Source: Trebouxia sp. TZW2008 (Eukaryota > Chlorophyta > Trebouxiophyceae > Trebouxiales > Trebouxiaceae). Taken from it: a stretch of 64,000 nucleotides of DNA. The notes beneath the pieces are model-generated. The model searched no databases and was not told where the DNA came from. It worked only from the letters and a program-made list of their open reading frames with translations. Shown piece after piece: positions 47,531 through 62,660 of the stretch (the stretch's first letter is position 1; every line of letters begins with the position of its first letter). The translations under genes and the position numbers were made by a program. The stretch lies in contig BDIU01000098.1 in the NCBI GenBank assembly GCA_002118135.1, positions 17,904 to 81,903 on the forward strand. Reading direction: 5' to 3'.

Positions 47531-49594
47531 ATGAGTACAGCTGCTGTGAAAGGTCAAACCTTGCTTGGCAGAAGTCGTGCCTTTCATTCTGGAGTGTCGC
47601 GAGCGCATCGCGGGACACAAGGTCTGTCTCGGCGGTTCAAAGGAAACAAAGCGTTGGTTGTCATGGCTCAAGGTGGGTTTCGTGGGTTACACCGCATCTG
47701 CTGTTTTGGATGCTCATGGGCATGCCGCATATCAGCAGAGGTCACCATATTGAAATCAGAAAACACCTCAGTCACCTGCAATTGATTGTAAGCGTGGAAA
47801 GCAGGCAGCAATGCTAGACGCAAGGCCGTATGGGCGTTTGACTTTGATGGGGTCGTGTGCAACTCAGTAGGCGAGAGCAGCATAACAGCTTGGAAAGTAA
47901 TGTCAATGGTTTGTGTGTCGTTAGTCTTTGCGTGCAAGACTCTCATCACTGCTCAACTGCAGGCTGCTGCACAACACTGGCCACACAAGTTTGACTCTGA
48001 TCAAACCAATGCAAAAAAGCAGCAGGTTCTCAAAGATATGCAAACTGTCAGACCAGTCATTGAGACAGGGTAGGCATTGTGATTGCCTTTGGTATGCTCA
48101 ATAGCTGAGGAGCTGTGCTCCTTGTGCTCAACAAAAGCCATGACATGCACTGCATAGGTATGAGAATATCATCCAGATACGATGCTTGCTTGAGGGTGTG
48201 AAGCCCGACGACATTCTGCAAAATTGGCACAGCATTCTGCCAGAATATATGGAGAAATGGCAGCAAAGCAGAAAAGAGGTGATGCACGCAATCAGTGCTT
48301 CTTGGCACATGCTTGTCATCCACAGGTCAAGCATATTCTTCAGTGTACAGTGTTTCCTCTGCAGCAAGTAGTTGTTGGCCCAACGACTTGTTGCGCTAAA
48401 GATCTTTGCTATCAAAGTCACGCAACAAGCTCAAATCTGTAGCATGCTGTTTGTGGCGAGATTGTTGACAAACCATTGACTTTTACAAATGCAATGCAGC
48501 TGGTTGAGAAGTTTGGCAGCGTCCGAGATGCCTGGATTGCTGATGACCTTCATAGCTGGCTTGATGCCAATGAGATCTACCCTGGCATACCAGAAGATTT
48601 TGCAGCAGCTCAGAAACAAGATGAGGTGTATATTGTCACCACCAAGCAGGTAAAGTCAGCACACTCTACCTGATCAGCTTTATTGAAGCATTGCAAAGCA
48701 TGCGGCAAAGATAGAGATCTAGGTTATGAATCATATATCACGCGACATTGATCATTTCTTGAAGCTCCTGTATGGGCTGGCACTGAAGCGCCTTGTGCAT
48801 TCTGATCAAGTCTACTGTTATGCAGCGTCCTCAACATGCAGATGCAGCCATGCTCTGGCCAGCATGCTTGATGCTGTCTGGGTTGCTGATGCCTTGCTTC
48901 ATGAGGAGAGAATTGGTTGTTTATGCAGGCCAGATTTACTGAAGCTCTGATGAAAGATAAAGCCAAGGTGGACTTTTCTGCTGACAGAATCTTCTCCACA
49001 GCAGAGACCGGTCAGCCCAAGAGTGAAGTCCTGAAGCAGCTGGAACAGAAGCATCCCAACACCAGCTACCACTTTGTTGAAGACAAGCTGGGCACTCTAG
49101 ACAAGGTAGGCACTCTCTGGTACATTTCACTATTGACCATTTACACCAGAGCTCCTTCAAAGACCCCACAAAGGGGCCCACAGGACACCTTTCGTACTCA
49201 AACATGACAGTCTTTGGTATTTGTCAATAGAGCATCCAGAGCTGTAATCGAGGATGGATGCTAGTGCTGCATCACCATTTGGCCGCATTAGTACATAGCT
49301 GTAATGCGACAGTAGTTGCTGTTGCAAGACAGACAACAGCATCAACATTGTGGCCTCATCATGTCTTCTGCAACCTCCAGCACGTCTAGAATTGGCAGCT
49401 GCAACATTGTTTGCAATTGCATTGAAGCGCAATTCTGTGCACAGGTTTGTCAAGTAAAGGAGCTGGACCATTGGAGCTTGTATCTTGTGGACTGGGGCTA
49501 CAACACACAGCAAGAACGAGATAGGGCTTCCAAACACCCCCGTGTGCATGTAGTGAATCAGCATCAGCTGTCAGAAGCCATCAATCACAGTTGA
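47531..49594 (+). CDS. Plant-type HAD-superfamily hydrolase, probably plastid-targeted
   Basis: Seven exons, 47531-47672, 47805-47896, 47963-48069, 48158-48278, 48500-48649, 48929-49105 and 49445-49594, give 312 residues. The first exon encodes a Ser/Arg/Ala-rich leader without acidic residues, like a chloroplast transit peptide. The catalytic motif I is AFDFDGVVCNS (nucleophile Asp about residue 60), followed by VRPVIETGYEN, IYPGIPEDFAAAQ, VYIVTTKQARFTEAL (motif II Thr), the helix FSADRIFSTAETG and FVEDKLGTL (motif IV Asp), ending with WSLYLVDWGYNT. This order is that of an uncharacterised plant HAD family. The substrate is unknown; a phosphatase or related hydrolase is expected from the family. 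Confidence 0.9.
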
Positions 49595-50527
49595 GCAGCC
49601 AAGTTTACCAATCACAGCACATCAGGCTTTGAGCAGGCCTTGATGCCTGTCAGGCAACTGAGTACCAGCTGCTGCCTCTCAGAATGTTCAAAGTCAGAGT
49701 CTTCAGACTTGACAATGACAAAAGCAGCATTACCTGGTACAATGTAACATGGACACTTCTGACAAGTACCAGTACTAGTTCAAGTGCAGAGCACTATGAT
49801 CCTGACAATTGGATTAAATGCAAATTCTGCTGCGTGCATGCGCTGACGCACTGTGTGTGCATGCAAGCAGCAGAGTGGAGGCATCGTGTTGTATAGTAGA
49901 GGTGGTTGTGTCACTTCTACTTACTTTAGAAGTGCTTCCAAAGCTGGCTGTCATTCAGCCTGAGAGGCCTCTGTGACTTCTGCATAATCATGTGACCACA
50001 CTTCTGCACGTGCATCAGGTGCACGTGCAATGGCAACCGGCACTTCGCACTGTGATCTGATCAAAAAATGTCACGCGGCGTTCACGTCACAACGGGACTG
50101 ACTTGTTTGGCGCAGCGTGGACATTTGGTCTGCCATAGTGCGCAGGGGCGAGGGTACTCAGTGAGACCCCTGCGGTGGTTCCGTCAGCAAGTTGCTTAGG
50201 TAGCTCTGTCTGGAGGCGACTTGCGCTGTTTAAACGTCTTGACGTAGTTGACGCAGTCCCAAGCAAAGTGCCGGGACGCGGCGAAATCGTCATTGCTCTG
50301 TCCCTTCTTTCGACTTGACTCAGGCGCCAGGGACACTTTTGACATGTCGCCTTTGAACGGAAGCTTCAGCAGCCTAATGTAAACATGCAGCTGGCTTGCG
50401 AAGTACAGCAGTAGGGCATGGCATAGCACGCGCCAGTTGGGCAGTGCTGTTCCGGCACTGCTTGCTCATTTGACAGCAGACCACCCTCAGCAAGCTCAGA
50501 ACAGGGCTCAGTTTACCCCACTTCATC
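49595..50527. other. Intergenic region with CpG-rich segment
   Basis: From 49595 to about 50020 nothing coding is seen. From about 50030 to 50345 the sequence is CpG-rich and probably contains the start region of the amidotransferase-peptidase gene. A short minus-strand ORF in it is listed separately. Confidence 0.45.
50196..50345 (-). CDS. Possible small ORF (49 residues), unrecognised
   Basis: An ATG-initiated minus-strand frame starts MSKVSLAPESSRKKGQSNDD and ends with KSPPDRAT. It is hydrophilic and contains an aromatic stretch SRHFAWDCVNYVKTF that looks more protein-like than chance. It lies in a CpG-rich segment divergent from the large plus-strand gene at 50528, where a promoter is expected. 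I find no family match; an overlapping 68-residue frame covers the same bases, so this may be spurious. Confidence 0.3.
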   Translation of the reverse strand: MSKVSLAPESSRKKGQSNDDFAASRHFAWDCVNYVKTFKQRKSPPDRAT

Positions 50528-53500
50528 ATGTGTCGGCTCATGGCCTATATGGGGCCGCCAGTTCTGGTGGCAGATGTAGTTCTATGGCCTGACAGGTCCA
50601 TTCTGAAACAGTCATATGATGCCAGGGAGCGTAAAATGGACGCAACACTGCCACAACACCTGGTCAGCAATGATGTTTCTGCATTTGCTAGCATGTGTTT
50701 GCATGCCTGTTGGCTATGCTCAGAAAGTTTTGATCGCACGACAGGCATATGGCAACTTGAATGGAGATGGTTTTGGCATTGGCTGGTTCAGCCAGCATCA
50801 GGAGTGTCAGCCTTCAGATCCTTCACCATGCGTGTTTACTTCCGTCACTCCTGCATGGTAGGGGACCAGACCTTGCATGCTGGAAGCTCATGATTGCATT
50901 GGCATGGGCAAGGCTTGTTTGCCTGTCACCAGTCTCTGCTTGAGGCATGCGAACCCACATCATGGTCATGCATGTAAGGCAAGAGATCAGTGCATACTCT
51001 GTGTTCAAAATATATGACTGCAACATACACCTGCCAAAGGCTGCGACAGGTGTATTGCAGCTGTGTGGTGCAATCCACTGATGAATGACATCAGCTCATT
51101 GGTTCAAGTTGCAGGAACAATGAGAACCTGGGTCGACCATCTTGCAAGATTGTCTTTGCCTTGGTCTTCACTCGCGTGCGTGCTGCCGATGTTGCAGGAA
51201 CAATGAAAACCTGGGACGACTGTCTTGCAAGATTGTGTCTCCCTTGGTTTTTGCTCATGTGCGCGCCGCCTACCCTGGCATGCCTGTGAGTGAGCAGAAT
51301 TGCCACCCATTTCAGTTCAGCCGCTACCTGTGGATGCACAATGGTGTGCTAGGAGGGTTTATGAAGATCAGGCGAGCTCTGCTGTCAACCCTGGCAGATG
51401 CAGCATATGACACTGTCTCCTCTTTCCATTCAGACTCAGCTGTCAGCTTCTCCATCTTTCTGAATCACCTTCCTGATTTGGAGTCTCAGCAGACGCCACA
51501 GAAGCTGCTGCAGGCTATGGAGGTAGGCATTGTTCTGTGCTCATTTCAGGTAGCGTTGTGCATGATAGGCTTATGTGGGACAGGTACATTGGGATCATGT
51601 GAGATAAGTACATGAGGTTCATGTGAGATAACTGCATGAAGTTTATGTGAGATAATCATGATGTTTATGTGAGATAGATTCGTTAGATTTATGTGAGATA
51701 AGTACACCAGGTTTATGTAAGATAAGTACATGTGAGACTGAGTGTCCATGTCAGCATTTCAAAGCTGCTGCCTATACCTCAGCAATGCTTCCATTTGCGT
51801 TTGGTGAAAGCTTGGTCTGCTATGTGTCGAGGTGTTGCTGACTGTCCTGCTACATCCTGCTGGCGCTTGTGATCTGGTCCTTACCAGCAACATTTAGCAG
51901 GCAACCACAAAACCGCTTTTGCGTCTGCCTGCATTGCACCTCACAGAGGCACTGGACATCCACAGCAGAATGAGCAATCTGCATACGCTGAGCCCAACAG
52001 GTACCCTGGCTTGTCCATGAATCAGACGTCATAACTACAGCAGTCTGCTTGCAGGCAACTATAGCCACTATCACCAAGTGCCAGCAAGAGGCCGGCATCA
52101 CAGAGGTCTCCCTGCTCAACTTTGTGGTGTCAGACGGGCACAACATGGTGGCCACGCGCTATGTTTCCCATGACTCCGAGTCACCTGCCTCCCTGTATTA
52201 TGCTGAGGGGTCAGCTTTCCAAAGGGAGCCTCATGAGACAGGGGCCAGGCCTGAGTCAGCCACTCCTGGAGCTGCATCAAATGCTGCCAGCGCCAGAAAC
52301 ACAGCTGTCACAGGTTTGCCATACCTTCACTTGCTAATGTCAATGCAGGCATCCTCATGGTGTTGTTATCTGTGCTTTTGCTTGAATGTTAAATTGGTTG
52401 CCTTGCAACACTTTTTGTGTACAGTTCAGCTGCTAGCACAGCTGTCCCAGCGTAATTTGACATTGCATGCTCTTGTCTGTGGTTGTGGCTTCACCTGATA
52501 TGGTCACAGCGCACCCAGCTTGCTTTTTGTGTCACTTAGCTGGTGGTACAGTTATCTGACCCTCTTCACAGCAGCGTCCTGATGCTACAACAGCCCATGG
52601 CTATACTTGACTAGCACATACAGCAATGATTGATTTGACTGCACATGCATGGTTTGCCTCTGTTGCCAGAAGGCTATTACTGCCACACAAGTATCTGGTG
52701 CCCCAGCAAGCTTTGCAGCAGTCTTTCAGTGTATTGCATGCACTCCAACTCCTGCGGTGCAACAGAGGATGCCCAGGAGCTTTCAGTCCCAACTCCGTTC
52801 TCAGCCTCGACATATCAAGCCCATGCTCCCAGTGCTGTTGGTGTACACCAGGTGAAGGGGAGTACAGCCTGAAGTATGGTGAGGTGGGCACCCGAGTTGC
52901 CATAGTTTCCAGTGAACCCATCACTGGCTCCTCAGACTGGGTCTCAGTCCCACGCAATACAGCCCTGGTGATCAGCCAGGGCAAGAGTGGGTACGTCAGC
53001 ATCCTGAAGTCCCCCTTGTCAGGCAGTGGCAAGCATGCCAGGCAGGAGGAGGTGATGCGCTGCCTGGAGGCAGTCACCAGTGCTGCTGAGGTGGAGGGGC
53101 AGGCCTACCCCCTGCACCGCCACAAACGGCGTAGGATGACACAGAGCGTCGGTCAGCAGCCCTGCTCTGCTGCACTTTTTGCTTATTTACTTTTTGCGTG
53201 ACACTCTTTTCATTGCATGGTGTGCATGACACACCATTGTTTACATGATGTGGTTCGTGTGACACTTTGGCCTGACCTGTTTTGATGTCGAGTCAGCTGT
53301 CTGCTATTTGCTATCGTGCAACTCATTGCTAGTCTCTGGTATTAGTCAGCATTTGTGCTATTCGGACACTGATATTGTGCCTGCTTGCAAATAGATTGCG
53401 TCAGAGCTCAGTACCAAGAGAAAACGCATAAACAGTCCCCACAGCAGTCACATTTGCCCTTGCAGCCTCCATTCTCTACTGGTTGAAGGAAAGCGAATGC

Positions 53501-56500
53501 GGTGCTTCCACTCTACAACCTGCCAAAAAATCACAGAAATCTTTGCAACAATTGTCAATTGTGCTGATCTGTGTCACATGTCAAAAGTGTGTGTTGGTTA
53601 ACAGGCAGCTTGGTAGAGCTGGAGTAGTCAAGCTGCACAGCAGATGGTGCTAGGGAGGAGCTGGTGCTGGCACTGCTGCTTACAAGCTGCAGCATTGACT
53701 TGCACTTGCTGCTTCTCACTGACACTGGCAAAGTGCCTTTGCTATTCAACCAGTGAAAAGATGTTGAAGCAAGACAACAAGGTGTGCAGGTAGCTTGGTG
53801 GAACTGGAATTGTCAAGCTGCAAAGCAGGCAGCACAGAGGAGGTGTGGGGTGCTGGCAGAGCTGCCTATGAGGAGCACCTGCATCAATGACTTAGACTTG
53901 CCACGTTTGGCTGATTGTGGCTGGATTGCTGTGTACCAAGGACGCTTGATTGTGTGCAGGCAAGTTGGTAGAGCTGGGACCGTCAAGTTGCACAGCAGGC
54001 AGCACAGGAGAAGAGTGGGTCGCTGGCAGAGCTGCGTATGAGGAACATCTTTGTTGTTGAACCAAAATGCACAATGTTCTGTAGGCAGCTTGGTTGAGTT
54101 GGAGGAGTCAAGCTGCACAGCAGGCAGCACAGGGGAGGAGTGGGGTGCTGGCAGAGCTGCCTATGAGGAGCACCTGCTGACAGGGCACAGCGGGGCAGTG
54201 GTGTGCCTGGCCATGTATGGGGACCGCCTGCTCTTCTCAGGCTCCACTGACTGCACCATCAAGGCAAGGGCTTACGCTGCAAGTCTCTGTGATGACAAAT
54301 AGCTGACAGAGTACAGCTTGAATGCCAGACATAGCATGCCTTGATTGAGTGTAATGAAGCAGAAATTACCATTCAGGCTGTGGTCTTGGTCACCTTCCAT
54401 TGTTTTTGCTGTTTGCATGTCTGGCCTAGCCACTATCTGACACGGGGTCATGATGGAGCAGCGTGCCCCAGTCTGTGGACTACTCAAAGCAATTGCATCT
54501 CATTTTGTTGCCAAACAGTGCTCAGCATAAGGATGTGAAATGCCGATTTGCTGTGCTTCGCCTGTTTGACAAGTGTCCATACTGAATGAGGGACTGCAGA
54601 CAGCAGGCCTACGACCTTGCTTTGATCAATCGAAACTGTCCTGTCAATGCAACAGCTCAAGCACAGGCTGTGTAGGGTGACTGACATGCCAGATGTATGC
54701 AACAGGTGTGGGACACCTCGCAGTGCAAGTGCTTGCACAGCCTATGTGTCACAACAGTTGTTTAAGTGTGGCAGGCGTGGGACACCTTGCATTGCAAGTG
54801 CTTGCATAGCCTACATCATTGACATGCTGCTTGTGTATGACAGGTATGGGACACCTCACAGTGCAAGTGCTTGCACAGCCTGAGGGGCCACAAGCAGCCT
54901 GTGCAGCGCATAGCTATCTGCGGAAAGCGCATGTACAGCACAGCAGGGCGAGACGTCAGAGTGTGGGACGTGGACAGCTTTGCCTGTCTGCAAGTTATCA
55001 AAACCCAGCAGGACTGCGGAGCCCTGTTAGCCCTAGCTGCTGCCCCTGATGGGACTGTGTATGTTGGTGGGCAGGTCAGTTGTTGCCATGCCAAAGTCTG
55101 TCATTCTTTGGCATTGTTGGTAAACTTCAGCCAAGGACTGCCTTGTGAAGCTGGGATTGCCGGGCATTGCAGAGTGGTTGATGGCATTGTTGCTGACCTG
55201 TATAAAGCCAGAAAATGCTGATGTCGCTGGATGTTTCTTGTCACGCATGCTCTGTCTGCAATGGCAGCAATCTGTATGATTGTGGGACAATGTGTGTACT
55301 ATGCATGCCGTACACAGTGGCAAAGCCGCAATGCTGCTGCAGATCACAAAAAGATGCTTAGTCTATATGAACTCTTTGTCATGAAAATTGAATGCAGCAA
55401 GCTAAAGGTTTCCTTTGCTGTGGTCTGACTGAAGCCATATGTGCAGGACATGCGGGTGCAAGCCTACAGGTGCAGCAATGACCCAGTCTGCACTCCCCAC
55501 CAAACTCACCAGCTAGACACCCCCACCCCCTCCACCAGCAACCTGCTTGCCAATGGCCACGCTGCCCCCCTCACCCCAGCCAACGGCCACCCCACCAGCA
55601 ATGGCTGGCTCTCCAGAACAGCTGCCTTGATCGACCCCCCACTGCCCAAATCAGGCATCAGACCCTGTGATGTGAACGGTCACAGCAATGCAACGGCTCA
55701 CAGCAATGCTGGGCAGAAGCCTCCTAGGCATGACAGCCTAAGCAGAGCAGCATCAAACAATGGTACAGCTTGCAATGGGAGTGCAACGCCAGAGGGAGGG
55801 GTTCTGGTGGCTAGCAGTGACATGGCTGATAGCCATTGTGGGGTTGTGATTGCACTGGCGCTGTGTGGGGAGTATGTGTGCAGTGCAGCTGGTGATGCCA
55901 TGATCAAGCTGTGGCAAGCTGGCTCCCTTGACTTTGTCAGGTGACATGCAAATCCTTTTGCCAATTGCCTTCTGCTCCACAGTGTGTTTGCCAACCACTC
56001 CTTCATTTGTGTCATTAAAGTCAGCAACATCATATCAGCAGCGTTTTCAACAAGACAGCCAGATGCTGTTTGCAAAACTGACAGTACTGCCTGCTGTTTG
56101 CACTGACAAGAATGCCAGGTGCTGTCTGCACTAATACAATTGCCAGATGCTGTTTGCATAACATGTTCTTGAACAGTTTACAACATCAAACCGGCAGAGA
56201 AGACACTGTTGCATTTCTGGCTAGAGCTACCCTGCATGTCATCAACTGCACTGCAGGGTGTTGCGAGGGCACAGGGGAAGTGTGCTGACACTGTGCTCCC
56301 TTGGCGGTCTGCTCCTCAGCGGTGGGCGAGACAACATCATCAGAGTATGGGACATGGAAGCCCTAGTATGCCGCAGAACCCTGCCTGGGCACAGAGATGA
56401 TGTGATGTGCATAGCTGGGCTTGGGCTGCAGCCCCCTGCCAGACCCCCTTCAGGAGCCTCACCACCCACTGAACACGATTATCAGGTATAGCTCAGGACT

Positions 56501-59500
56501 GTTGCGAAAATGTCTGTGAGGCAGTTTGAGGCCTTGCCGTTGCTGTGGTGCCAAATTACTGTGTGCATATGATTGCAGCCATGAGCTGCACTGCCTTGAC
56601 AAATCATCAGTTGGTCTACTGACCTTGTTCTGACTTGTGAGGTCTGCTCACATTCACCTTTTGGCCATGATTGCATCTAGATCAGCTCATTGGGGCTACA
56701 TTGCTGCTGTCTGTTGTGCTGCTTTGGCAGCTGTCACCATCTTGAACCATGTCAAACTGTGTAAGCTGTCATGCGTCTGTCTGGGAGCTGTCAGCTGACT
56801 ACCTGTGGCTGTGCACAGTTTGGGGAGGGGCGATTGAGCAGCAGTGCTCTGTTTGCCAGTAGCTCAGCAGATGGCACAGTTAGGGTGTGGTCAGCACGCT
56901 GCTGGTCCTGCCTGGCGCTACTCACACCCCACCCGCCCGACCAGTCCCTTCCCCTCCTTGCCACTGTTATGTCAGACAGGTCAGCCTTGCATACAAATAC
57001 AATGCACTAGCCAAGCTACATATGCTGCAAAAAGCATTTGTGATGCCTGACAGTGCAATGCGCCTCCCGTGTGCATGTCATACAAGCCTGGTCAAACCTG
57101 CTCATGGTCCTCAGGCATCCCGGCTGAACTCATCTGGTTTCAGCTGCCAGACAATAAGCTGCTTCAGCATTCCTTGGTCTATACATGTTTGTGTCTGCTG
57201 AGTCTTGCCCCACTCTGAGATAGTGCTGCCTGTCGGCCGTGCACAGGAACTGATACCATCCATGATAGTTCCCAATGAACAAGCATTTGGGTCTGTGTGC
57301 ACAGACAGAACCGTAATTCCTCATGTGTGTCAATTTGTAAGCATGTGACAAGACTCTCATCATGCATGGCATTGGCTTGAAATGACACCCCTTTTTTGGT
57401 TGGCAGGTTTGCCATCACAGGGTCATCAGATAAGCTGGTGCGGCTGTGGAGTATAGAGGACTTGTACAGGCAGGCTGTAGAGACAGCCTGGGGGGCACCC
57501 ACCCGACCCCAGCCTGCCCCTGCTGACTCTGCACAGTCCACGCGCACTGCTGCTGTTACTGAGGACGGTCAGGAGGTCTCACAAGGTTTGATCCTGCAGC
57601 TGCAGCCATTATGAGCATCAGTGATGTAATGCTCATGGTCTGTTGGCAATTTGGCTTGACCCCATGTTTAACGAGCTCAAAAAGCATAACCTCAACCATC
57701 ACTGCGACCATCGTTTTCATTTGCATGATCGTCATTTTCCATCATCAGCAGTGTAGAGCAGCGAGCAACACTGCTATTCAGCCCTTTACTGCTTCTGAGG
57801 ACGTCGTTGCCTGGGTCTGCGGTTTGCTGTGATTGCAGCTTCTATTGTATAGGTGCATTGACTGAAGCCATATGGGTTGTCAGCATATCGTGTTGGCACC
57901 ATTGTTTAGCCATGACAGAAAGCAACAGACTTTGTCGCATGGCACAATGGCAGCTCGCTTGATGGCAGCTGCAGCAGCATGAAATAGGACCATTATTAGG
58001 GTCCACCAGTACATCTCAGCAATGCTTACTCTATTCATTGCGACTCTGTATACTGTGTGCAGGTGCCATAGCACGCAGCAAACGAGCTTGTCCCAATGCT
58101 GCAAATGAAGCCCGAGCAGGCGGCAGCAGCAGCAGCAGCAATAGTGTGACCCTGTCTGCCCGCCTGGAAAAGGAGCTAGAGCGCACGCTGAGGGAGTTTG
58201 TGCGCATGCGCACGGTCAGCAGCGATCGCAGCCTTAGAGAGGACTGCTTCCGAGGGGCCAAGTACCTTGCCCACCTCTTGGAGTCCCTAGGTAAGCCTTC
58301 TTGGAATGGGCTGTATTTATGTTCTGTTGGATAACAGCCTGCTTGTTTGGAGCAACTGCTGTGCACCTGAGACATGATCGTTCATCTGCAAGCATGTGTG
58401 AGGGTGATTGCTGACCCTACACGTCGCTGTAGACAGCAGAAAGATATGTGACTCGACACAAGATATGTTGTTTGATTGTTACTTCTGTGCTCGTGACACG
58501 AGAGCTCTCAGCTGTAGCTTCTCTTTTTTGACGATGTGCCTGTTCAACGCCAGAGACATTTAGGTGGGTATCAAGTCAGCTTTTGAAGGCATGTTTGATA
58601 CAGATCTGCAGCTCAGGAGGTGATCGGCTTCAATCAAGCTTTTAGTAAGCATTCATGCACAGCTTTTGTCTGCATCGAGCTCAGAACAGATTCTAAGCCT
58701 TAGAGACCCTTCTGTCAATGATGAGTCAAGCCAATGGACCCTTCAACCACAGACCGTTCAACCAAGAGTTCATGCCCTGACTTGATGCAGGTGCTGAGAT
58801 CAAGATCAGCCGGCCTGTGGAGGACAAGAATCCTGTTGTCATTGCCCGCCTTGGCAGGGATGACAGCAAACGCACTGTCACCTTCTATGGCCACTATGAT
58901 GTGCAGCCTGCAATGGAGCGGGAGTGGGTGACTGACCCCTTTGAAATGAATGCCATTGACGGCTACTACTATGGGCGTGGCACATCAGACAATAAGGTCA
59001 GCCTGCTTTTCCCACTATTTTTGCCTTATGCATAGCTGCAGCACCTTTGCCACAAGACCATGCAAGACACTGAGCTGCAAGCACCCAAAATGGCATCTAG
59101 CACCTGGATGCACTCTTATGCTCATTCTAAAAGCTTATTGCCATCGACTGTCATCAGGTGCTATGAGACAAGCAGACTGCGCCTGTGCAGCGTATGTTTA
59201 TCTCATGATGGCAACATGTGGGTGATGTTTGTTCCACCTGGCTCTTGCTGGACATTTTTGGCAAGCGTTCCTGATCTTGGGTCAAAAGCCTGGGGAAAGA
59301 TAAATACACTTCACAGATGACTAGTATCCAATTTGCAGATCCAGATCATTTTTTGCTGACATGCGTGGCGTTTGGGTCATGCAGGGCCCTATCCTGGCAT
59401 TCATATATGCGGTGAAGGAGATGCTGGAGGAGGGGCATGGCACAGACGCCTCCCTGCCTGTCAATGTAGCCTTTGTCTTTGAGGGAGAAGAGGAAAATGG

Positions 59501-62500
59501 TATGTCTGATCCATTATATGCTTGTTGTTCCTCAGCCTCAATGGTACAGCTGTGTCCATTCTGTGCTGAGCACATGCCAAGCTTCATGATCTTGATGGCC
59601 ATAGAGTTTTGGGCGCAAATCAGCTGCACTGCATAGGCACTTTGAGCTTGACTTCATACTCCTGTTCTCAAGAAACTGTCTTTACACAGACTGTCCTTAC
59701 TCAGCAGCAATTCTACAGTACGAGTGCAGTGATCAGTCTGGATCTTGTTATCCTTACACTGCAAATGTCCTTACATGTAATGTTCTGATATCGAGCAGCC
59801 TGATATCAGGAGGTGACTGTGGTGGTGTTGAGGGTGATGGGTTGCATGCAGGCAGTGTGGGATTCAAAGACGCGCTGTTGGGCAACCAGCACTGGCTAGA
59901 GGGCACCCAGCTGGTGGTCATCAGCAACACCCAGTGGGTTGGGGAGACCATGCCTTGCCTTACATACGGCATGCGTGGCATGATTGCCCTCTCCATCGAG
60001 GTCTGACCCCGCTGTTCCTCGTCTCTCCCCCACAAGCCCACAGTCACCCCTACATGCAGGCTTGCATACCTGTCACATACGCTGCAGCTAATCATGCTTT
60101 GACCCTGCCTATCAGTCATTGCTCCTGCTCTGCTGACTGCACACATACAGTGCGACCTCTCACTGCCATACGCCATACTGTGACTTTGTCTCTGCACTCA
60201 GTTTTTGTAAGGGAAAACAGCCACAAGTCACATCAGCCTGCAATGTCTCTGCCGCAGGGTACTGCTTGCAGCTCAAAATGCTTCTGCAGGCTCAGCAGAC
60301 TAGTCAGTCACACAACCAGATTTCAGAGCTCTTCAGATCTTGCGCTTGCGTGTGGTGCAGGTGAAGGGCCCAGAGCGTGACATTCACAGCGGCAATGATG
60401 GTGGTGTCTTCAATGAGCCGCTGTCAGATTTGACCAAGCTGCTAGCCAGTCTGGTGGACAGCCGCAACAACATCATGGTGCCAGGCTTCTACAACGGGGT
60501 GCGGCCCAACACCCTGGGGGCAGCCTTACAGCGTTTGGACACCTGCCATGAGTTCAGCCTGGAGGGGTACCGAGAAGCCCTGGGCATCCCAAAATTGGCC
60601 TCTGCTGCCAACATGAGGTGTGCTATCCTGCTCTTGTGCTTTCTTTGTCAGACGCGCGTTTCACAGATGCACCTGTGATGGATAGCCCTCCTGCCAAAAC
60701 CCAGAGTGGAAACCCAGAGAAAAGCCAGAAACAAGCTGTCTTGCTTGTGTGCCATGTTAGCAAACAAGCTCGATCAATTATGACCAATTGCTAGCTAATC
60801 GAATTTGTCACATTCCTGCTGGCCTCTGCTGCCATTACAAGATCAGCTGTCCTATTCTTGTGGTTCTTTTGTCACATGTGTGGTTCACATATATTGGACA
60901 GTCCTTCAAAAGTACAAATGGGACCTGTCTTGCTTGCTTGCTTACCATGTCAAGAAACTAGCTGGACCAGGCATATCTATGTACAAGCAATGGTCAGATT
61001 CATCAGAGCTTAACAGCATGTCAGACTTTACTTCTAACCTCCAAGCCAGACATCAGCTTGACAGTACCAGTGTGTTGTGCAAGGTGCATCGTCCTGCATC
61101 ATAGAAAACAATTGCCACCTGGTGTATTTCTTGTTCAATCATTCTTTTACAGGGGAGAGTGCCAGCTGTGCGATGACTCTGCATATTCTCATGAATTGAC
61201 ATGTGCAACCAGTTTGGGATTGCTGGTTAGCCTGACAGCGTGGGGCATGGTGCAGGGAGCTTTTGAAGGCAAGATGGTGTGAGCCCACTCTGTCTGTAGT
61301 CGATGTGCGCATTGGCGATGAAGACGGCAGTGGTGACAGCGCCTACCGCTTTGGCCCCACCAGATTCTCTGTCATCCCTCGCTCAGCTGTCGGCAACGTC
61401 AGCATTCGTTTTGTGCCTGATCAAGACGCTGAGCACCTCATACAAGCTCTCAGGTCTGCATACCTTAAGTCCATCTTCTGTGTTCTTCTGTGCTGCTTGT
61501 CTGCTGGAGTAGCAGACAGGAAGTATACTGTATGTAGCAATCTCATGCCCTCATCAAGGCGTTTTTGCATCATAGTGTGCAGCAAGCATTCAAGTCCAGA
61601 CTTCTGGCTCAGAGTTTGGCAACAGAATTGCAAGCTTGCGACACAGTACATTCATGTCTTCCAAGCATGCTGTGCCGCTTCAGGCAAGTGCCCTGAAAAC
61701 ATGAGCTTGTGGTGGTGGCTGCAGGGCGCATGTGGAGCATGAGTTCAACAAGCTGCGCAGCAGCAATGTGGTGGGTGTGCGTGTGAAATCAGTGGGGGAC
61801 TGGTGGGAGGCTGACCCTGAGAGCAAGCTGTTCCGCCTAGCAGAGCGAGCCCTGGCCCGCGAGTGGAGCGTGCAACCCCTCTTTGTGAGAGAGGGGGGCA
61901 CCATGCCGGTCAGTGCCCCTCATCCTGCCTTTCTATCCCCTCAGCTATTCATTCTGAGTGCGTTCGTGAAACAGATGTCTAGTAAGAGAGCCAACAGCAG
62001 TGTTACAGTGCTTCTAAAGGTGAGCAGATGAGCAGGGGAAAAGGATTGTCCCTCACTCTACTTGGCTGCATCATGCTTCTGCCTGCATGTCTTCACCTGC
62101 AAATAATGCTTTGAGTTCCGGTCCTGGCCAAAGCATTGAGGCACATGTGGATGACAATTGTTTCCTGTTTGACATTGTTGCTGGGCTGCATGTGTCGTTG
62201 CAGGTCTTGCTGTGCAACAGCGCCCTTTTCTGGGGCCATGCTACTCAATTGGAGCCTCTCAAGCATGACAGCATTTTTTACGTTGAAGGCTCAGCTTCCT
62301 TAGCTGTGCTTCCATTGACCGTGTTCAAATTCAACAACATGAAACTATTCCAGAGCAAGTTTCTCATCAGCCACTGTATCAGGAGCAGTGTGGTCTACAT
62401 TGTTTGCAGAAAGATTTATGGATCCATTGTCTTGGCAGTTCGTGCAACCCTGCCCATTATTTGGCAGCTGAAACAGATTGGTGCGATGCTTGCAGGTGGC

Positions 62501-62660
62501 CTCCACCTTGGAGAAGATGCTGGCAGCCCCAGCTTTGCTTGTCCCTTTTGGTCAAGCCAGTGACAACTGTCATCTGGCTAATGAGCGACTGCAGCGCATC
62601 AACCTGATCAAGGGCAAGAATGTCATCAAGCATCTGCTGAATGAGGTGGCCACAGTCTGA
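50528..62660 (+). CDS. Fused Dug3-Dug2-type protein: class II glutamine amidotransferase, WD40 propeller and M20 peptidase
   Basis: Nineteen exons join in one frame, 1362 residues: 50528-50662, 50745-50857, 51198-51522, 52055-52313, 52852-53151, 54085-54263, 54844-55074, 55447-55940, 56257-56485, 56819-56979, 57407-57585, 58063-58290, 58791-58996, 59385-59499, 59852-60000, 60361-60617, 61274-61453, 61725-61908, 62496-62660. Residues 1-377 are an Ntn-type amidotransferase: MCRLMAY (nucleophile Cys2), SYDARER, NLNGDGFGIGWF, FAHVRAAYPGMPVSEQNCHP, SEPITGSSDW. About 378-868 are WD40 repeats (LLTGHSGAVVCLAMYGDRLL). About 868-1362 are an M20 peptidase: FYGHYDVQP, GRGTSDNKG, FEGEEENG, DIHSGNDGG, DNCHLANERL, with metal and catalytic residues present. 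Yeast Dug3 is the amidotransferase and Dug2 is WD40 plus M20; together they cleave the gamma-glutamyl bond of glutathione. The intron after 54263 begins with GC. The exon 17 acceptor (61274, AAG) is unusual; the first two exon edges are the least certain. Confidence 0.88.
51107..51280 (+). repeat. Duplicated start of amidotransferase exon 3
   Basis: GTTGCAGGAACAATGA then GAACCTGGGTCGACCATCTT (51111-51180) and the following CTTGCAAGATTGT block recur at 51191-51265. Both copies have a good acceptor in the same phase and both read NNENLGR-SCKIV. Only the second continues FAHVRAAYPGMP; using the first would shift the frame in the second copy. Confidence 0.9.
51575..51735. repeat. Minisatellite, unit like TTTATGTGAGATAAGTACATG
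   Basis: Seven or so imperfect units of about 23-28 bp built on TTTATGTGAGATAAGTACATG occupy part of the intron after 51522. Keeps long frames open on the minus strand as MYLS/ISHI-type repeats, which are not a gene. Confidence 0.85.
53600..54185 (+). repeat. Four tandem copies of the linker exon between amidotransferase and WD40 parts
   Basis: Copies begin after acceptors at about 53605, 53790, 53960 and 54085, each reading GSLVELE-like, then SSCTAGSTGEE and AGRAAYEEHL. Copy 1 has an early in-frame stop, and copies 2 and 3 run into stops after EEHL. Only copy 4 continues to LTGHSGAVVC, the first WD40 repeat. The copies are spaced 125-185 bp. Confidence 0.92.
54700..54895 (+). repeat. Three tandem copies of a WD40 exon start
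   Basis: Acceptors at 54705, 54774 and 54843 are each followed by G(T/C)(G/A)TGGGACACCT, then GTGCAAGTGCTTGCACAGCC-like sequence reading VWDTS(Q)CKCLHSL. Only the third copy continues RGHKQPVQ and stays open to the donor at 55074. Confidence 0.92.
59690..59790. repeat. Copy of the interspersed repeat with GTCCTTAC modules
   Basis: GTCCTTACTCAG, GAGTGCAGTGATCAG and GTCCTTACATGTAATG in this intron match, in reverse orientation, modules of the repeat at 25675-25830. Confidence 0.5.

What the first reader, a model, noticed from the sequence alone, without database searches (positions are those of the whole stretch)
50528..62660. Glutathione-degrading Dug3 and Dug2 activities fused in one polypeptide
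The amidotransferase part (Dug3-like) and the WD40-M20 part (Dug2-like) are separate genes in yeast that form a complex. Here the donor after the amidotransferase (53151, phase 1) joins in phase to the linker exon (54085), the linker exon has no usable Met, and no stop separates the parts over 19 exons. The active-site Cys2 and the M20 metal ligands are all present, so both halves look functional. This would be a single-chain gamma-glutamyl peptidase for glutathione turnover, with the propeller as the spacer. A Dug1-like Cys-Gly dipeptidase is not in the window. I cannot say whether the fusion has been reported.
Basis: partly seen in the sequence, partly recalled or inferred. Interest (0 to 1): 0.88.

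Follow-up and report, generated by a model that had tools for sequence, protein, structure and literature searches.

The report
One-chain glutathione-degrading enzyme in algae
A green alga makes, as one long protein, the two parts of a glutathione-cutting enzyme that yeast makes as two separate proteins, and the joined form is found across green and red algae, so a pathway described as fungal is probably much wider.

Summary
The fusion is real. Nineteen exons (50528-62660, +) join without a stop into 1,368 residues: Dug3-type class II amidotransferase, WD40 propeller, Dug2-type M20 domain. Protein P0001, from contigs of at most 5,222 bases, equals the spliced model over residues 5-1368; the gene spans 12.1 kb, so that contig should be spliced RNA, which settles the doubtful 53151-54085 junction. 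It is no one-off: 112 of 297 fetched proteins carry both domains, Dug3 first in all 112, in chlorophytes, streptophyte algae and red algae; the named fungi seen are split. One paper calls the pathway fungus-specific, another reports DUG orthologues in Euglena. One claim fails: the M20 metal ligands are not all present. A ligand Asp is Asn1077, as in 97 of 104 fused and 13 of 13 named fungal rows; Dug1 and CNDP1/2 have Asp. The amidotransferase residues are invariant. Best reading: a one-chain gamma-glutamyl amidase on glutathione or gamma-Glu peptides, with the M20 domain as dimer scaffold rather than peptidase. Activity is inferred; whether fused or split came first is unresolved.

The parts
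50528..50662 (+). exon 1: MCRL..., start, Cys2 nucleophile (codon 50531-50533), Dug3-type amidotransferase
50745..50857 (+). exon 2: NGDGFG motif
51198..51522 (+). exon 3: HVRAA, MHNG and HSDSA motifs; the second of two copies of its start, the one in P0001
52055..52313 (+). exon 4: amidotransferase
52852..53151 (+). exon 5: end of the amidotransferase half, donor of the fusion intron
54085..54263 (+). exon 6: linker and start of the WD40 propeller (GC donor)
54844..55074 (+). exon 7: WD40
55447..55940 (+). exon 8: WD40 with a low-complexity insert
56257..56485 (+). exon 9: WD40
56819..56979 (+). exon 10: WD40
57407..57585 (+). exon 11: end of the WD40 part and linker
58063..58290 (+). exon 12: linker, start of M20 domain
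58791..58996 (+). exon 13: M20, H979, D981, D1011
59385..59499 (+). exon 14: M20, E1049 and E1050
59852..60000 (+). exon 15: M20, Asn1077 (59926-59928) in place of the Asp metal ligand
60361..60617 (+). exon 16: M20, His1110 (the residue that in CN2 comes from the partner subunit; role recalled), start of the dimerisation domain
61256..61453 (+). exon 17: M20
61725..61908 (+). exon 18: M20
62496..62660 (+). exon 19: M20 C-terminus, His1340, stop TGA
53603..54140 (+). four tandem copies of the exon-6 acceptor and exon start; the last (54085) is the one in P0001

Best explanation
One gene encodes one polypeptide: Dug3-type class II amidotransferase + WD40 propeller + Dug2-type M20 domain. It most likely works as the one-chain counterpart of the yeast (Dug2p-Dug3p)2 complex. 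Cys2 of the amidotransferase attacks the gamma-glutamyl carbonyl of glutathione (and probably of gamma-Glu dipeptides) and releases glutamate plus Cys-Gly (or the other amino compound). The propeller holds the amidotransferase against the M20 domain, and the M20 domain pairs two chains into a dimer; it is unlikely to cut Cys-Gly itself. Shown here: the fusion, the spliced sequence, the domain order and its spread, the intact amidotransferase signature, the altered M20 metal site. Inferred: substrate, dimer, scaffold role.
For: Spliced model and an identical database protein from a short contig. Pfam over cut-off: GATase_4 42.6 bits (23), WD40 97.8 (27), Peptidase_M20 81.7 (24.6), M20_dimer 30.9 (21). 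In 112 of 112 two-domain proteins Dug3 precedes M20. C2, R3, N51, D53, H103, R105, N131, G132 and D162 do not vary wherever present in 90 fused and 16 named fungal Dug3 rows (numbering). Besides truncated or split algal rows, the M20-without-Dug3 rows found are fungal WD40-M20 proteins. The M20 ligand Asp195 (CN2) is Asn in 97 of 104 fused and 13 of 13 named fungal Dug2 rows. A fused relative (P0007) is predicted mostly with confidence (mean pLDDT 81.8, pTM 0.60); best solved match Dug1, 4g1p. The amidotransferase is found only here in the assembly (5 of 5 matches), the M20 part in 8 of 9 matches, the ninth being the distant C380 gene. Yeast: the (Dug2p-Dug3p)2 complex is said to cleave GSH to Glu and Cys-Gly (PMC6508711, passages), and genetics suggests gamma-Glu dipeptides too (PMC7617739, passages).
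Against: No activity has been measured for any fused protein that I know of. The amidotransferase could use another gamma-glutamyl substrate. The other M20 site residues (His99, Asp101, Asp132, Glu167, His228, His445 of CN2) are kept in at least 99 of 104 fused rows, more than a bare scaffold would need, so some metal or substrate binding may remain. No clear Dug1 partner was found in the assembly, while GGT and ChaC genes are present, so the enzyme may be redundant. S. cerevisiae Dug2 and Dug3 themselves were not among the fetched rows. The recalled yeast results on WD40 and M20 could not be read here.
Confidence: 0.7

Rival explanations
1. Bifunctional enzyme: the amidotransferase frees Cys-Gly and the M20 domain of the same chain cuts it to Cys and Gly, so one protein does the whole degradation and no Dug1 is needed.
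For: In this protein and 22 of 23 named fused chlorophytes the catalytic Glu is kept; the other M20 site residues are kept; no clear Dug1 orthologue was found in the assembly.
Against: The Asp metal ligand is Asn here and in 23 of 23 named fused chlorophytes, while the four closest solved dipeptidase sequences (3dlj, 4ruh, 2zof, 4g1p) have Asp; in the fifth, 4mmo, the printed alignment puts Gly there with Glu beside it. Fungal Dug2 has the same Asn, and yeast Dug2p was reported to have no peptidase activity (recalled, Kaur et al. 2012).
Confidence: 0.12
2. Same architecture, other substrate: the enzyme hydrolyses a different gamma-glutamyl compound (gamma-Glu dipeptides, phytochelatins, an EgtC-type intermediate, or plain glutamine) and glutathione is minor.
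For: The amidotransferase part also matches the EgtC model (144.2 bits) and EgtC structures; of 80 bacterial loci with a stand-alone relative none shows an M20 frame in the flanks, so the catalytic part can serve without such a partner; the yeast complex also seems to take gamma-Glu-Met.
Against: Below the EgtC cut-off of 218.65 bits. It shares the WD40-M20 partner and the Asn signature with fungal Dug2, whose complex acts on glutathione.
Confidence: 0.15
3. Two neighbouring genes, Dug3 ending soon after 53151 and Dug2 starting downstream, wrongly joined.
For: Exon 5 read on into the intron gives 16 residues and a stop; the intron holds three unused copies of the exon-6 start; in one relative the two halves are annotated as near-neighbour gene models (P0194 gene15336, P0066 gene15334).
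Against: P0001, an unbroken 1,364-aa frame on contigs of at most 5,222 bases, is identical across the junction; in the 200 codons upstream of exon 6 in its frame every stretch is closed by stops and the linker exon has no Met before the WD40 part; both domains recur in one protein in 112 rows.
Confidence: 0.02

Closest known systems
Fungal Dug2p-Dug3p glutathione-degrading complex
   Same: Same three domains; amidotransferase site residues identical to 16 named fungal rows; WD40-M20 part alignable over its length; same Asp-to-Asn change in M20.
   Different: Two proteins in the named fungi seen, one polypeptide here; amidotransferase placed at the N-terminus; an extra low-complexity insert in exon 8.
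Dug1/CNDP (M20) dipeptidases
   Same: Same M20 fold (best solved match 4g1p), dimerisation domain.
   Different: Dug1, CNDP1, CNDP2 keep the Asp ligand; here Asn. No WD40 or amidotransferase.
EgtC, class II amidotransferase of ergothioneine synthesis
   Same: N-terminal Cys class II amidotransferase; gamma-glutamyl amide chemistry (recalled).
   Different: Score below the curated cut-off; no WD40-M20 part.
Unnamed 'glutamine amidotransferase type-2 domain-containing' proteins of algae in public databases
   Same: Same fused architecture (Coccomyxa, Chlorella, Chlamydomonas, Volvox, Chara, Cyanidium and others).
   Different: Nothing essential; this locus is one more member.
Euglena gracilis 'GSH degradosome' contig GDJR01091960.1 (PMC6351624)
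   Same: DUG orthologue outside fungi, reported by BLAST and up in hypoxia (passages).
   Different: Whether it is fused is not said in the passages seen; its sequence was not examined.

Membership tests
Dug3 (class II amidotransferase of the DUG pathway) | Cys nucleophile right after Met and class II amidotransferase motifs | tested here: met
   C2, NGDGFG, HVRA, MHNG kept; GATase_4 over cut-off
Dug3 (class II amidotransferase of the DUG pathway) | closer to fungal Dug3 than to EgtC or bacterial stand-alone relatives | tested here: inconclusive
   EgtC model below cut-off; fungal Dug3 and bacterial stand-alone relatives both lie outside the main fused group, deep order weakly supported
Dug3 (class II amidotransferase of the DUG pathway) | cleaves glutathione to Glu and Cys-Gly | not testable with these tools
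   needs an enzyme assay
Dug2 (WD40-M20 partner) | WD40 followed by an M20 domain on the fungal-Dug2 side of the tree, apart from Dug1/CNDP | tested here: met
   split from the three dipeptidases with support 100/100
Dug2 (WD40-M20 partner) | separate polypeptide that binds Dug3 | tested here: not met
   one polypeptide; so a fused variant, not a plain Dug2
M20A metallopeptidase (catalytically active) | full set of two-metal ligands | tested here: not met
   Asp195 (CN2) is Asn1077
M20A metallopeptidase (catalytically active) | catalytic Asp and Glu | tested here: met
   D981 and E1049 in the window protein; the Glu is absent in 42 of 104 fused relatives
EgtC | score over the curated equivalog cut-off | tested here: not met
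   144.2 against 218.65 bits, on P0001, which lacks the first four residues

The most novel reading that the evidence does not exclude
The one-chain enzyme is the old eukaryotic form of the DUG system, and the two-gene complex known from yeast is a later fission in fungi. The whole family is built on a former peptidase whose metal site was altered before the groups parted and which now serves as dimer scaffold or sensor for an amidotransferase. The 'fungus-specific' pathway would then be an old, largely unnoticed glutathione-turnover route of algae and protists.
Probability: 0.35. Interest if true: 0.7.

Novelty: new variant of a known kind. Interest (0 to 1): 0.55.

Why it matters
Reviews of glutathione breakdown in photosynthetic organisms name GGT and gamma-glutamyl cyclotransferases (one review's passage, PMC10295655, has no mention of Dug); a widespread third enzyme would change that picture. 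A covalently joined complex fixes the 1:1 stoichiometry and makes structure and mechanism easier to study, and the shared Asn in M20 offers a testable reason why Dug2 should not be a peptidase.

Tried and rejected
Two-gene reading: rejected on P0001. A separate stand-alone Dug3 in the assembly: the one GATase_4 hit (C395) is glucosamine-fructose-6-phosphate aminotransferase by its motifs (name recalled).

Results against a clean 'always fused' picture: of 297 fetched proteins 112 have both domains, 23 M20 without Dug3, 128 Dug3 without M20, 34 neither. Among named or traceable algae, P0058 (Chlamydomonas sp. UWO 241) and P0070 (Volvox africanus) have WD40-M20 without the amidotransferase; P0172 (Cyanidiococcus) has amidotransferase and WD40 without M20; P0179, P0180, P0181 and P0191 (Haematococcus, two Monoraphidium, Chlorella variabilis) are short Dug3 models, some marked partial; and P0066 and P0194 look like the two halves in near-neighbour gene models of one genome. 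I take most for broken gene models, untested.

Polarity of fusion and fission: in the M20 tree the fused rows are one side of a branch against fungi and outgroup with support 58/56, in the amidotransferase tree 52/25, so undecided. The fused protein P0167 falls near fungi in both, weakly (joining it to fungi in the M20 tree: p-AU 0.268, not rejected). Joining fungi with the rows I took for holozoans is disfavoured (p-AU 0.030; the groups were named after trees had been seen), which speaks against plain vertical descent in opisthokonts. These trees used 39 and 47 chosen rows, not all. EgtC was too long a branch to root the first amidotransferase tree, and bacterial 3mdn was long too.

Bacterial stand-alone Dug3-like genes as a clue: 0 of 80 loci show an M20 frame of 80 codons or more in the flanks; the profile does find CNDP1, CNDP2, Dug1 and the C380 fragment. 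The tool kept 80 of 285 loci, flanks were at most 6 kb and often shorter. Foldseek: the 50 rows shown of 1,988 are M20 and propeller matches; domain contacts could not be tested because no coordinates are given. C2 and the other site counts use 90 of the 112 fused rows (those reaching both ends of the site region), the M20 counts 104 of 112 (those covering 85% of the profile).

Papers: ten searches, judged from titles, abstract starts and some passages; the lists were cut. None showed a report of the fused protein. Most subscription papers are not held, among them Kaur et al. 2012, Ganguli et al. 2007 and the Aspergillus nidulans DUG paper.
Full report
What is there. Splicing 19 exons between 50528 and 62660 (+) gives 4,107 bases and 1,368 residues with one stop, at the end. 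All 18 acceptors are AG; 17 donors are GT and one (exon 6) is GC. Pfam finds GATase_4 (best stretch 50-225), WD40 repeats, Peptidase_M20 (976-1363) and M20_dimer (1091-1261), each over its curated cut-off.

Proof of the fusion. On DNA alone the junction 53151|54085 was open to doubt: exon 5 read onward ends after 16 residues. A full-length search returned P0001, 1,364 aa, from two contigs of which the longest has 5,222 bases. It equals the model from residue 5 to the end, letter for letter. Since the gene covers 12,133 bases, an unbroken 4,092-base frame on a 5.2-kb contig should come from spliced RNA (my inference; the source is only labelled 'lgn'). The missing residues are MCRL; the database frame starts at the next Met, which I read as a gene-caller's choice, because 64 of 90 fused rows start with MC.

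Spread. Of the 297 proteins fetched by three searches, 112 carry both domains and in 112 of 112 Dug3 precedes M20. Among them are 23 named chlorophyte rows (Trebouxia, Coccomyxa, Myrmecia, Elliptochloris, Chlorella, Auxenochlorella, Prototheca, Picochlorum, Bryopsis, Raphidocelis, Scenedesmus, Chlamydomonas, Volvox, Pleodorina, a pedinophyte, Chloropicon, Cymbomonas), five streptophyte algae (Chara and Closterium by name; Mesostigma, Chlorokybus and Spirogloea read from gene-name prefixes, recalled) and three red algae (Agarophyton, Gracilaria, Cyanidium). P0129 bears the prefix CFRG, which I recall as Creolimax, and rows named m.93046 and the like resemble choanoflagellate transcriptomes (recalled). 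Each search listed at most 120 rows and many rows are unnamed, so nothing follows about absence in land plants or animals. The named fungi seen have a WD40-M20 protein (13 rows) or a stand-alone amidotransferase (16 rows), none both. Exceptions to the fused state among algae are told under Tried and rejected. Databases name some fused proteins 'glutamine amidotransferase type-2 domain-containing', 'Cndp1' or 'Cys-Gly metallodipeptidase DUG1', the last two misleading in view of the next paragraph.

The two halves are not equally intact. Amidotransferase: in 90 fused rows Cys2 is present in 70 of 70 that reach it (20 do not), N51, D53, N131, G132 and D162 in 90 of 90, H103 and R105 in 89 of 89. 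M20, aligned on carnosinase CN2: His99, Asp101 and His228 are kept in 104 of 104 fused rows, Asp132 and Glu167 in 103, His445 in 99; but the ligand Asp195 is Asn in 97, Ser in 6 and Asp in 1, and that one row (Closterium) has lost two other ligands and the catalytic Glu. Catalytic Glu166 is kept in 62 of 104; it is lost in the five streptophyte algae and in many unnamed rows that group with red algae, and kept in Cyanidium. The 16 rows called fungal include three unnamed ones; the 13 named fungi all have Asn and Glu. Dug1, CNDP1 and CNDP2 have Asp; mouse CN2 too, while in the next solved relative, 4mmo, the column shows Gly beside a Glu. The role of each CN2 residue is recalled, from no call.

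Mechanism. The yeast (Dug2p-Dug3p)2 complex is said to cleave glutathione to Glu and Cys-Gly (PMC6508711, passages) and, from mutant growth, gamma-Glu dipeptides (PMC7617739, passages). I recall from the abstract of Kaur et al. 2012 (not held) that Dug2p showed no peptidase activity, that its WD40 domain binds Dug3p and that its M20 domain makes the dimer. The fused order and the altered M20 site fit that division of labour. The predicted fold of the Elliptochloris relative is mostly confident (mean pLDDT 81.8, pTM 0.60; 130 of 1,188 residues under 50), with Dug1 as the top solved match; relative placement of the domains was not tested.

Setting in the genome. In the 68.5-Mb assembly the amidotransferase matches only here (5 of 5 matches) and the M20 part in 8 of 9. 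GGT-type and ChaC-type genes are present. Other M20-family genes exist (C329, C62, C380, C484), but with Dug1 as query the only matches outside this gene lie on C380; the search is exon by exon, so a split Dug1 could be missed.

Evolution. Trees of the two halves agree broadly (green algae, red algae with some protists, fungi), as expected if the halves travelled together. The deep order is not resolved. Fission in fungi, a fusion after fungi branched off, and transfer between lineages all remain open; a plain fungi-with-holozoans grouping is disfavoured in the M20 tree at p-AU 0.030, with the holozoan labels recalled. None of 80 bacterial loci with a stand-alone relative showed an M20 frame nearby.

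Against the literature. PMC9012958 (abstract start and passages) calls the pathway fungus-specific. PMC6351624 (passages) had already reported DUG orthologues in Euglena by BLAST. No paper on the fusion was found in ten searches of the held library (listed under Tried and rejected).

Verdict. A real, conserved gene fusion with a matching spliced sequence, already sitting unnamed in databases; function well supported by homology but untested. New variant of a known kind; interest 0.55.

Noticed in passing
51108-51270, 53603-54140, 54682-54881: Three exons of this one gene (3, 6, 7) have tandem copies of their 3' splice site plus exon start in the preceding intron (2, 4 and 3 copies in all). P0001 holds the last copy each time. 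Upstream copies keep a CAG acceptor; the exon-6 and exon-7 copies run into a stop in the used frame, so use of an exon-6 copy would give a Dug3-only product. TRF shows no other array of period over 39 in the window.
   Followed up: partly
47800-49600: Upstream + strand gene with an FDFDGVV motif, HAD-hydrolase-like; read by eye from the DNA only.
   Followed up: no
L038-L117: Stand-alone Dug3-like amidotransferases in many bacteria (Acidobacteriota, Planctomycetota, Bacteroidota and others) without an M20 frame nearby; their role is open.
   Followed up: partly
P0027, P0028, P0031, P0041, P0042: Some fused relatives are much longer (1,840-2,174 aa), with large inserts between the domains.
   Followed up: no
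P0214: A stand-alone Dug3-like row labelled Colp12, not named as a fungus, falls inside the fungal group of the amidotransferase tree: a contaminant, a transfer or a broken model.
   Followed up: no
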